Positions 53,988 through 59,781 of a stretch of DNA of 64,000 nt are shown here, piece after piece. Location: assembly GCA_024363285.1 (NCBI GenBank), contig AP024710.1:1582001-1646000 (forward strand). Direction: 5' to 3'. This DNA comes from Leptolinea sp. HRD-7. Its GTDB lineage: Bacteria > Chloroflexota > Anaerolineae > Anaerolineales > Anaerolineaceae. The translations under genes and the position numbers were made by a program. Each line of letters opens with the position of its first letter. Positions within the stretch are counted from its first letter, which is position 1. A model generated the notes under the pieces. The model made no database searches, was not told the DNA's origin, and saw only the letters and a list, made by a program, of their open reading frames with translations.

Positions 53988-55424
53988 TTATTTTCCCGAT
54001 TGTTTCAAGAACTCCCGTACGGCTTTTATCTGTTCCAGTGGAATGCGTTCTTCTGCTTCCCAGTGATCCAGCAACCCCGTAAGGGTTAGGGCGGAATGCA
54101 GGTTGAAGCCGGCTGCCTCGAGTGATTCACGGGCACCGGATTGACGGTCGATCAGTACGGCAACATCTTCTACTATGAGACCGGCGGAGGTTAGTTTTTC
54201 AATGGCTTCAAATTTACTGCCGCCGGTAGTGGCCAGGTCGTCGATCACCACAACCCGTTCGCCGGGTTTGTAAAAGCCTTCGATCTCAGCGCGGGTGCCA
54301 TACGCTTTGACTTCCTTGCGGGGGTAGATCACCGGCCAGCCGGTTTGCAGGCTGATGGCTGTGGCAATAGGCAAAGCGGCATACGGTAAGGCTGCCAGAC
54401 GGTCAAACTTCAATTCTTTCAAGAGCGGTATAAAGGCAGCCGCAGCCTGAGCCAACAATTCAGGGTGTGATACCAGCTGGCGCAGGTCGATATAAATGGG
54501 TGAGGTCAACCCGGATTTGAGGGTGAATTTCCCGAAACCAATGCAGCCGTTTGTGAGCAGGCCTTCGGCCAGCGCGTCTGACATGCGGCGGTGGCCGTTG
54601 CCGCGCGCTACAGTTGCTGTCGGGTTGCTCTCTTTTACCTGGCGTTGAATTTCTTCGTGCAGGTCATGCGCGGCTTTGCGCATATCCGGCGCTTTGGAGA
54701 TGGCGCGGGATACCGGGATAAGCAGGCCGGATTTATCGGCACGCAGACCTTCTCGCAGCGCGGCGGAGAGGTCACCACCCTGTGCACCCACGCCGGGTGC
54801 CAGGATCCACATATCTGGAACCAGTTCTCGTACGCAGCGCAGGGCGTCGATCTGAGTGGCACCCACCACCAGACCGATATTGCTGCCGGTGTTCCACTCA
54901 TGGGCCAACAGGGCGACCTTTTCAAAGAGGCGAAGCGGTTTATGCTCACCGGCCAGGTGCAGGTCCTGCAGGTCAACGGCACCGGGATTGGATGTTTTGC
55001 AAAGCAGGAAGACACCCGTATTGGGGTTCTTCAAAAAAGGGAGGATCGAGTCATACCCCAGGTAGGGGTTGAGGGTAATGGCGCCGCCTTTGAGGTTCTC
55101 AAAGGCCGATCGCGCGTACGCTTCAGCGGTGGAAGAAATATCACCGCGTTTGCTGTCAAGAATGACCGGAATATCTGCCGGCACGGCAGCCACAACATCT
55201 TTCAGTGCCTGCCAGCCTTCCGGTCCAAAAGCTTCAAAGAAGGCGGTGTTGGGTTTGTATGCGGCCGCGACGTCTACCGTCGCTTCGATCAACCGCAGGC
55301 TGAAGTCCCGTGCGGCGCTGGCAGTCGGCTCTGCCAGGTCGTCAGGGCGCGGATCGATCCCTATGCATAACAGGGATCCGGTCTTCTTGCACCGTTCTTC
55401 CAATTGAGCGAAAAAGGGCTTCAT
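53988..55424 (-). CDS. pyrFE: Bifunctional OMP decarboxylase / orotate phosphoribosyltransferase
   Basis: About 478 residues. Residues 1 to about 275 are PyrF (IGIDPRPDDLAEP near 23, catalytic VILDSKRGDISSTA near 90). Residues about 285-478 are PyrE (TLKSGLTSPIYIDLRQL; PRPP loop VVVIDDLATTGGSKFE near 395). Together they make UMP from orotate. The order F-E is opposite to animal UMP synthase. A GTG at 55430 is in frame, but ATG 55424 after GAGGTGG fits better. Confidence 0.95.
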   Translation of the reverse strand: MKPFFAQLEERCKKTGSLLCIGIDPRPDDLAEPTASAARDFSLRLIEATVDVAAAYKPNTAFFEAFGPEGWQALKDVVAAVPADIPVILDSKRGDISSTAEAYARSAFENLKGGAITLNPYLGYDSILPFLKNPNTGVFLLCKTSNPGAVDLQDLHLAGEHKPLRLFEKVALLAHEWNTGSNIGLVVGATQIDALRCVRELVPDMWILAPGVGAQGGDLSAALREGLRADKSGLLIPVSRAISKAPDMRKAAHDLHEEIQRQVKESNPTATVARGNGHRRMSDALAEGLLTNGCIGFGKFTLKSGLTSPIYIDLRQLVSHPELLAQAAAAFIPLLKELKFDRLAALPYAALPIATAISLQTGWPVIYPRKEVKAYGTRAEIEGFYKPGERVVVIDDLATTGGSKFEAIEKLTSAGLIVEDVAVLIDRQSGARESLEAAGFNLHSALTLTGLLDHWEAEERIPLEQIKAVREFLKQSGK

Positions 55425-55445
55425 CTCCACCTCTTTTTTGCGTTA

Positions 55446-57565: not shown

Positions 57566-57594
57566 AAAAAAAGAGAGCCTGATAAAGGCTCTCT
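57566..57594 (-). terminator. Leader terminator (attenuator) upstream of pyrC
   Basis: On the minus strand a perfect eight-bp stem (57594-57587 with 57579-57572, loop TTTATCA) is followed by a run of seven T. It lies between the pyr promoter and the pyrC ribosome binding site, so it can only serve as an attenuator. Upstream leader sequences CGTCC (57658-57654) and GGACG (57619-57615) can pair. Confidence 0.8.
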
Positions 57595-57688: not shown

Positions 57689-57716
57689 ATTTTACCGGAA
57701 AACCTCAAAGAGTCAA
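57689..57716 (-). promoter_or_regulatory. Promoter of the pyr operon
   Basis: On the minus strand TTGACT (57716-57711), a 16-bp spacer ending CCGG, and TAAAAT (57694-57689). It is the clearest sigma70-like promoter in the window and gives a leader of about 135 bases before pyrC. Confidence 0.75.
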
Positions 57717-57843
57717 GGAGTTTGATTGTAAATTTTGTAATGGATTTGCCTGAAGAGGGTATTTCTTATTCAATTCTCAATATTTTCGGTTTAAATGAAT
57801 ATGGTACTGAAAATTATACTCCTCTGACAAAATATTATTTTTT

Positions 57844-59256
57844 TTATGAAGTAGAAAACAAATCAATTGCTATATTAACAATTATGTTTTTATACCTAAG
57901 AATTTGAAAGGTATCTTTTTTAAGTATTTTTACAAAAGCATTAAACTCATCATCAAGAATGGGATGTCTTATTTCTTTTTGTTGAAATTTATCTAATTGT
58001 TGTGAAAACAACCATTTTCTTGTTTTCCAATTCGAGTTAGATTGTAGCATCTCTGAAAAAATCTCAGTTATTGAAGCGGATTTTTGCCAAAGAATACCGA
58101 TGAGTTGATCAAATTCTTCTATAGATAAAAATATTATTTGTTCATGAGGTATTAAGTTTGAGTCAATTTGCCTCTCTGCCAATATTGGCGCTACAGATTC
58201 TTCGATAAATTCTTCCCATGCGATATCACCAGGACCTAAATATAAGTCTTTATATGTAACAACCATAAGAAAAAAATTCGTTCTATTTAATATATTCAGA
58301 TTATCTTGAGCTTGTTTTATTGAATTTGCCAACGAGAATCCTTGGATTACCCCTTTGATTACACTATCTTGGAGTTCATGTTGTAGTGGTTTGTTTTTAG
58401 GATTTACCTTTACTATTGGACGCATTTCAATTGCCTTGACTTCGATCAATAAAGCAAATTCAGAGAATGGGAGAAGAAAATCAACAACATTTTCCTTCGG
58501 AAATGCACGGAATAAATCTTTTTCTATGTAGTGTGCAAATCCTAATGAAGATATACATCTTCCTACATATTTTTCTAATTCCGTGCCAAATTTCTCGGCT
58601 AAAGAACTTCCACCCTCAGATTTCATAACGTCATAAAAAATATTTGAAATTGTTTCCTTTAATACTTCTTGTGAATAAACGAGAATTTTTTCTTCGATTT
58701 TAAGAAATGGATATCTGACAAAAGGAGATATTTCAGTTAATTGTAAGAAAGGGTTTTCTATGAGCTGTTTCCGGTTATTTAGAAACTTTTTTACATCATC
58801 AGGCAATAATGAAATTGCACTACAAAAGGAATTAATTTCGTGTTTTGAATAATCTAGGTTGTGGAACAAATCACCAGGAGAAAAAATAAACGCTCTAGGG
58901 TTATTCATTAACCATGCCCAAACTAGCCAGGATAGTTCGAGAAAATACTCTATATCATCTAGCTTTAAAGACTCTTCTATCGTTTTTCGAATTGGATTAT
59001 CAGTTGGTAGACTACAAAATAATACTTTTTGGCGTGAAATAGTCCAAGCTCTAAATTTCTTTTGTATCCAAAACTGTTGAAAAGCAAGTGTCCTTATGAA
59101 TTTTTGTATATCAGTAGGTCTATCACCCAATAAAAAAGGATTTGTTTCAGCACCTTCAAAATTATCAATAAGATTCATGAGCTTATTCAAAATATTTTCA
59201 TCTGAGTGTCGATATGGGTAATTTGAACTCCCAAATTCAAATGCCCATTTGATCAC
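57844..59256 (-). CDS. AT-rich unknown protein, putative PD-(D/E)xK nuclease
   Basis: 470 residues from GTG 59256, but that start has no ribosome binding site and the frame stays open up to 59388. Residues about 255-300 look like a restriction-type nuclease core: Asp in NVVDFLLP, then LLIEVKA (E-x-K) on the next strand, preceded by a helical region (SSLAEKFGTELEKYVGR) as in many PD-(D/E)xK proteins. The gene is much richer in A+T than its neighbours, which suggests transfer. A role in phage defence is a guess. The pyr promoter lies 128 bases after its stop. Confidence 0.75.
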   Translation of the reverse strand: MIKWAFEFGSSNYPYRHSDENILNKLMNLIDNFEGAETNPFLLGDRPTDIQKFIRTLAFQQFWIQKKFRAWTISRQKVLFCSLPTDNPIRKTIEESLKLDDIEYFLELSWLVWAWLMNNPRAFIFSPGDLFHNLDYSKHEINSFCSAISLLPDDVKKFLNNRKQLIENPFLQLTEISPFVRYPFLKIEEKILVYSQEVLKETISNIFYDVMKSEGGSSLAEKFGTELEKYVGRCISSLGFAHYIEKDLFRAFPKENVVDFLLPFSEFALLIEVKAIEMRPIVKVNPKNKPLQHELQDSVIKGVIQGFSLANSIKQAQDNLNILNRTNFFLMVVTYKDLYLGPGDIAWEEFIEESVAPILAERQIDSNLIPHEQIIFLSIEEFDQLIGILWQKSASITEIFSEMLQSNSNWKTRKWLFSQQLDKFQQKEIRHPILDDEFNAFVKILKKDTFQILRYKNIIVNIAIDLFSTS

Positions 59257-59411
59257 AAGAAGGAGACGCCATGGTAGAAAGCCTTGCCATTCATAAATCG
59301 ATTTTGATTCAATTTCTCGAAGTTTTGTTGTGGCAGAAATAACTAACGATGCCGTTTCTAATTTTCGTATCTGGTTTCGTATTTTTTTTTAAATTCATCA
59401 TAAAAACTCAT
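59257..59411 (-). other. Upstream start of the AT-rich gene, out of frame at an A9 tract
   Basis: ATG 59411 has AAGGGG seven bases upstream and encodes MSFYDEFKKK before nine A (59390-59382). In the zero frame it stops at a TAG (about 59360-59358). A -1 shift in the A-run joins it to an open frame (IRNQIRKLETASLV to PWRLLLVIKWAFEF) that runs into the 470-residue frame without a stop. The full product would be about 522 residues. It may be programmed slippage, phase variation, a mutation or a sequencing error. Confidence 0.75.
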
Positions 59412-59781
59412 AATTAGGCCCCTTATAAGTTTTACCAGATCTTTTTCTTCAAAAACAAGGATTAAAATTTTCGATTTTAATAAATAAACAATTGGTTCAA
59501 GATATCAAAAAATCCAACAATCACTGTCTTAAATCTAAACTCCTATATTCCATTTTTACTTTAATATTTGTAAAGTCTAAACCCCACAATAAATTGATTA
59601 TATAAAAATTTTTCTAGAATTATATTCTGAATGATAAACCTCGCTAAACATGTGATCATAAAGCTAAACATGTATTTGAATGATCGTATACTTATTCATT
59701 TGTAAAAATGTGCGTTTTGCTATCGTCAATATGAGACAATTTGGTTATTTCATTAAGTAATTCTCAACATATTTACGATCA
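59412..59781. other. AT-rich spacer between the nuclease-like gene and azlD
   Basis: No gene is supported in these 370 bp. On the minus strand two TATAAT boxes (59602-59597 and 59624-59619) could start transcription of the nuclease-like gene. GCTAAACATGT occurs twice, at 59643-59653 and 59663-59673, exactly 20 bp apart, as an operator might. Confidence 0.5.

What the first reader, a model, noticed from the sequence alone, without database searches (positions are those of the whole stretch)
57844..59411. AT-rich nuclease-like gene whose full frame needs a -1 shift at a nine-A tract
The minus-strand frame (stop at 57844) stays open far beyond its first GTG (59256), up to 59388, but contains no ATG, GTG or TTG there. 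Just upstream, ATG 59411 with a good AAGGGG site leads into AAAAAAAAA (59390-59382) in another frame that stops about 25 bases after the run. A -1 step in the A-run joins the two exactly. A-runs are classic sites for ribosomal or RNA-polymerase slippage. The protein has D...E-x-K residues of a PD-(D/E)xK nuclease and sits in an AT-rich island next to the pyr operon. A slippage-controlled nuclease would be new; a lost-function gene or a homopolymer error are the dull alternatives.
Basis: partly seen in the sequence, partly recalled or inferred. Interest (0 to 1): 0.82.

Follow-up and report, generated by a model that had tools for sequence, protein, structure and literature searches.

The report
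GapS1-like defence nuclease, frame-broken
A stand-alone anti-phage-type nuclease gene that this bacterium acquired sits between two housekeeping operons and is knocked out of frame by a run of nine As near its start, most likely by an ordinary slip in the A-run (or a sequencing slip) and not by a conserved control mechanism.

Summary
The sequence observation is exact: ATG 59411 leads into A9 (59390-59382), that frame stops at 59358, and a -1 step enters a 514-codon open frame with no start codon before GTG 59256. The two frames were one gene. NCBIfam's antiphage_GapS1 model aligns end to end (E 5e-86; 289 bits, below its 320-bit cut-off), and homologues run unbroken through the site, in register on both sides. 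AlphaFold plus structural search give a PD-(D/E)xK core (D303, E316-x-K318, Q349). The gene is a roughly 2-kb, 31% GC insert between azlD and the pyr promoter: 90 bp there in a same-genus genome, an unrelated gene in another, and no homologue in 146 other genomes of the family. 'Slippage-controlled nuclease' is not supported: no homologue has the A-run and no stimulatory structure follows it. In contrast, the same genome's chlD has A9 (A AAA AAG) plus a strong hairpin, a published recoding site. Assembly error is not excluded but not favoured: at least seven other 9-base A/T runs in this genome lie in intact frames. Best reading: a recently acquired GapS1-like defence nuclease, switched off (possibly reversibly) by a tract-length change, perhaps leaking through slippage.

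The parts
59419..59424 (-). Shine-Dalgarno-like AAGGGG, 7 nt before ATG
   Evidence: sequence
59358..59411 (-). zero frame from ATG 59411: MSFYDEFKKKYETRYEN, stop TAG; its first residues (YDEFK) align with the N-terminus of intact GapS1-like homologues
59382..59390 (-). run of nine A, in-frame heptamer A AAA AAA; point where the frame changes by -1
   Evidence: position in genome G000:C1:1641382-1641390
57844..59388 (-). 514-codon open frame, GapS1-like nuclease (NCBIfam NF047931 over residues 3-463)
58056..58593 (-). PD-(D/E)xK core (residues about 266-445; E272, D303, E316, K318, Q349)
   Evidence: alignment A1, model and fold search, coordinates
59254..59256 (-). first possible start (GTG) in the long frame; no Shine-Dalgarno site, would remove the conserved N-terminus
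57717..59781 (-). low-GC insert (25-33% GC against 50-65% around it) between azlD and the pyr-operon promoter; 90 bp in same-genus genome G001
57689..57716 (-). probable pyr-operon promoter TTGACT-16-TAAAAT, conserved in same-genus genomes; lower edge of the insert

Best explanation
This is a horizontally acquired, stand-alone GapS1-like PD-(D/E)xK nuclease gene whose single reading frame has been broken in the DNA by a recent length change of the A-tract 21 nt behind its start codon. Translation from ATG 59411 normally ends after 17 residues, so the cell is essentially without the nuclease. A minority of full-length protein (about 522 aa) may still arise from RNA-polymerase or ribosome slippage on the nine As, and further length changes of the tract in descendants would turn the gene on again (unselected or selected phase variation). 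When made, the nuclease would be expected to cut DNA during phage infection. Shown: gene identity, unbroken ancestry of the frame, insert nature, nuclease core (from alignment and a moderate-confidence model), absence of other lesions. Inferred: that the nine As are real, that slippage leaks product, and the anti-phage role (from the family).
For: The GapS1 profile aligns over 1-454 of 455 positions without another break. The closest homologue (L005/L121, Chloroflexota MAG CSMAG_1213, 40% identity) reads ...PYEAFKPIRNLLGKYD... against ...FYDEFKK|KIRNQIRKLE..., and G422 reads ...SKFKNIRNRIRKL..., so both halves of the broken gene are homologous to one N-terminus. No homologue has the run. Codon-position GC rhythm is intact along the whole frame, so the break is recent. 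Catalytic residues are kept. Homopolymers elsewhere in the assembly are reliable: 42 of 42 A/T runs of 7-8 in genes conserved with G003 are in frame, no frameshift candidate among 277 compared genes lies at a run of 7 or more, and at least 7 genes with 9-base A/T runs are intact. [quoted passage not shown]
Against: A single genome; no reads, so an undercounted run cannot be excluded. No second strain shows another tract length, so phase variation is untested. Slippage yield in this organism is unknown; E. coli RNA polymerase slips less on A-runs than on T-runs (PMC6260861).
Confidence: 0.5

Rival explanations
1. Assembly error: the real chromosome has a different number of As and an ordinary intact GapS1-like gene.
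For: Homopolymers are the commonest error site of long-read assemblies; the genome is 3.79 Mb in 2 contigs, which suggests long reads. The rest of the frame is perfect. A/T runs drop more steeply from 8 to 9 bases than from 7 to 8 (31 to 4 in 400 kb).
Against: At least seven other genes with 9-base A/T runs are in frame, and 42 of 42 runs of 7-8 in conserved genes are in frame. The relative G003, in about 20 contigs, has just as few 9-base runs (20 of 8 bases to 4 of 9).
Confidence: 0.3
2. Programmed slippage: the A-run is selected to make a small, regulated amount of a potentially costly nuclease by transcriptional or -1 ribosomal frameshifting.
For: A AAA AAA in the zero frame is a usable -1 heptamer and nine As suffice for transcriptional slippage. 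The same genome has a recoded A9 in chlD, a site published for Chloroflexota of the Anaerolineaceae group (PMC9227772).
Against: No homologue has the run. No hairpin beyond shuffles downstream (z 0.1 to 0.5, -4 to -6 kcal/mol), against -20.6 kcal/mol downstream of chlD. No internal Shine-Dalgarno site before the run. The zero-frame product is a 17-residue peptide without evident use.
Confidence: 0.12
3. The protein really starts at GTG 59256 and the upstream part is irrelevant.
For: It is the first start codon of the long frame.
Against: Homologues include the roughly 45 preceding residues with invariant W40 and nearly invariant P39; the profile starts at residue 3 of the open frame; codon-position rhythm extends upstream; no Shine-Dalgarno site.
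Confidence: 0.05

Closest known systems
GapS1 (GAPS1), NCBIfam NF047931; Gamma-Mobile-Trio anti-phage system 1 (Mahata et al. 2024, cited in PMC12774648; paper itself not held)
   Same: end-to-end profile alignment, same size, single gene, same conserved D...(E/D)xK...Q core; carried as an accessory gene (here a chromosomal insert; homologues in P2-like prophages and plasmids)
   Different: 289 bits, below NCBIfam's 320-bit subfamily cut-off; found in Chloroflexota as a lone gene between azlD and pyr; reading frame broken at an A9
Upx defence protein (PDB 9wuf)
   Same: model residues 1-483 align with residues 38-517, Z 12.7 over 363 residues, Foldseek E 3.4e-4
   Different: Upx chain is 1212 residues; 7% identity; only its N-terminal half corresponds
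Type IIS restriction cleavage subunits R.BspD6I2 / N.BspD6I / FokI
   Same: nuclease core, Z 8.7 to 9.6
   Different: no recognition domain or methyltransferase partner here; 11-15% identity
chlD programmed -1 frameshift (PMC9227772), present in this same genome
   Same: A9 run, -1 direction
   Different: chlD has A AAA AAG and a strong downstream hairpin, the recoding is found across taxa and both products are thought to be used; the nuclease has none of these
Transcriptional slippage at nine As, Thermus thermophilus dnaX (PMC1088944)
   Same: same run length in the sense strand
   Different: there the templated frame is already the full-length one; here slippage would be needed for the full-length protein

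Membership tests
GapS1 (NCBIfam NF047931) | whole-protein score at or above the curated 320 bits | tested here: not met
   289.3 bits, E 5.3e-86; the closest intact homologue scores 250. Filed as GapS1-like, not as GapS1
GapS1 (NCBIfam NF047931) | alignment over the full profile | tested here: met
   profile 1-454 of 455 to residues 3-463
GapS1 (NCBIfam NF047931) | anti-phage activity | not testable with these tools
   needs a phage assay
PD-(D/E)xK nuclease | conserved D and (D/E)xK residues in a suitable fold | tested here: met
   D303, E316-x-K318, Q349; D303, K318 and Q349 invariant in the 10-sequence alignment, position 316 E or D; core matches BspD6I, FokI, HindIII and Shedu structures. 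Model mean pLDDT 69, pTM 0.71
Programmed -1 frameshift gene | slippery site conserved among homologues | tested here: not met
   no homologue has the run
Programmed -1 frameshift gene | downstream stimulatory structure | tested here: not met
   z 0.1 to 0.5 against shuffles
Programmed -1 frameshift gene | both products made | not testable with these tools
   needs proteomics or a reporter
Phase-variable (contingency) gene | tract length differs between clonal or close isolates | not testable with these tools
   no other carrier among 147 genomes of the family

The most novel reading that the evidence does not exclude
The A9 at codons 8-10 acts as a contingency switch or slippage valve that keeps a costly anti-phage nuclease off in most cells and on in a few, as a population-level bet-hedge.
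Probability: 0.12. Interest if true: 0.65.

Novelty: new member of a known kind. Interest (0 to 1): 0.3.

Why it matters
It adds a divergent GapS1-like defence nuclease from Chloroflexota and shows a single-gene defence insert at a variable azlD/pyr junction. If the A9 is real, it is a simple test case for whether homopolymer tracts near start codons tune defence genes. The same genome offers chlD as a built-in positive control for recoding.

Tried and rejected
Pfam and PADLOC gave nothing; no solved structure by sequence with the single protein, and only a chance-level match with the family profile. Genome-wide homologue scans by short peptide patterns found only the Chloroflexota MAG CSMAG_1213 already known; the 10-row alignment was too diverse to scan with. 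Viral contigs gave relatives of the MT837992 and Klebsiella-prophage forms only. Terminal repeats of the insert: only weak AT-rich matches, none convincing. Promoter-like sites in the region were no more numerous than in shuffles. No paper on GAPS1 biochemistry was held. Internal start at GTG 59256 considered and rejected (see rivals).

Full report
Observation. On the minus strand AAGGGG and ATG 59411 begin a frame that runs into nine As (59390-59382) and stops 17 codons in. A frame displaced by -1 is open from 59388 to 57844 (514 codons) and has no start codon before GTG 59256. About 36 stops would be expected in it by chance and the longest chance frame in 300 simulations was 139 codons; the codon-position GC rhythm is steady along its whole length, the part before the GTG included. 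An A-run of this length somewhere in a 31% GC gene is not rare (31% of simulations), but within the first 60 nt it is (1.25%).

Identity. NCBIfam's antiphage_GapS1 model matches residues 3-463 over profile positions 1-454 of 455 (E 5e-86, 289 bits; curated cut-off 320), while Pfam and PADLOC are silent. Homologues with unbroken frames were read in a Chloroflexota MAG (L005/L121, 40% identity), another genome of the same class (L002), a human-faecal phage contig, P2-like Klebsiella prophages, three enterobacterial plasmids and several viral contigs. In the two nearest by place of the match...YEAFKPIRNLLGKYD... and ...SKFKNIRNRIRKL... align with ...YDEFKK-KIRNQIRKLE..., that is, with residues from both sides of the frame change. 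The gene was therefore one frame through this point, and the GTG start, which would cut off a block with invariant W40, can be set aside. D303, K318 and Q349 are invariant and position 316 is E or D, as in a PD-(D/E)xK core. A six-sequence AlphaFold model (pLDDT 69, pTM 0.71) matches Upx (9wuf, Z 12.7 over 363 residues), BspD6I and FokI nuclease domains (Z 8.7-9.6), HindIII and Shedu. The phage-annotation paper PMC12774648 independently calls the Klebsiella prophage homologue GAPS1-like.

Setting. The gene fills a roughly 2-kb stretch of 25-33% GC between azlD and the pyr promoter in a genome of about 49% GC. In same-genus genome G001 the two flanks are 90 bp apart; in G002 an unrelated 326-aa protein gene sits there; in G003 azlDC is elsewhere. 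None of 146 other genomes of the family has a homologue and only 4 others of 396 in the class. It is a lone, probably horizontally acquired insert.

Is the run an error? In 400 kb of this genome against 400 kb of G003, 277 shared genes gave 3 frameshift candidates, none at a run of 7 or more, and 42 of 42 A/T runs of 7-8 in conserved genes are in frame. The genome has about 45 A/T runs of 9 or more; at least seven lie inside genes with intact frames, among them a sigma factor, a response regulator, a PAS-domain protein and an ABC-transporter ATPase (the sigma factor, response regulator and ATPase are named by eye). Errors at such runs are therefore not the rule, but one case cannot be excluded without reads.

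Is it programmed? The only other A9 frame change recognised is in chlD: GTA AAA AAA AAG TAA ends the AAA+ half and the VWA half follows in the -1 frame, with a -20.6 kcal/mol fold downstream (z -0.9 against shuffles). chlD frameshifting is published, including in Chloroflexota of the Anaerolineaceae group, with slippery site plus downstream structure (PMC9227772). The nuclease has A AAA AAA but no structure beyond shuffles, no internal Shine-Dalgarno site, and no run in any homologue. Its zero-frame product is 17 residues. I see no sign of selection for recoding. Nine As can nevertheless slip during transcription (PMC1088944), so some full-length protein may appear by default.

Conclusion. Most likely a real, recent tract-length change has put an acquired GapS1-like nuclease out of frame, as decay or as the off state of an incidental switch; next likely is an assembly error; a dedicated slippage control is possible but unsupported. 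The anti-phage role is inferred from the family name and relatives, not tested.

Noticed in passing
G000:C1:1792010-1792018 (locus L096 1501-1509; also L120): chlD/BchD-like gene with A9 and -1 frame change (GTA AAA AAA AAG TAA) and a downstream hairpin: fits the published chlD programmed-frameshift group.
   Followed up: partly
window 57717-59781; L069 7254-7344; L068 6223-7203: The azlD/pyr-promoter junction is variable in the genus: empty in G001, a 326-aa SH3-like repeat protein in G002, the GapS1-like gene here.
   Followed up: partly
L079, L104, L105 (near 1501): Other genes of this genome carry an in-frame A9 within about the first 10 codons (response regulator, PAS protein, ABC ATPase), so A-runs near starts are not unique to the nuclease.
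   Followed up: partly
window 57572-57594: Terminator-like hairpin with T-run between the pyr promoter and pyrC, a possible attenuator of the pyr operon.
   Followed up: no
window 53988-55430: Single 480-aa frame that reads as a PyrF-PyrE fusion (OMP decarboxylase followed by orotate phosphoribosyltransferase), judged by eye.
   Followed up: no
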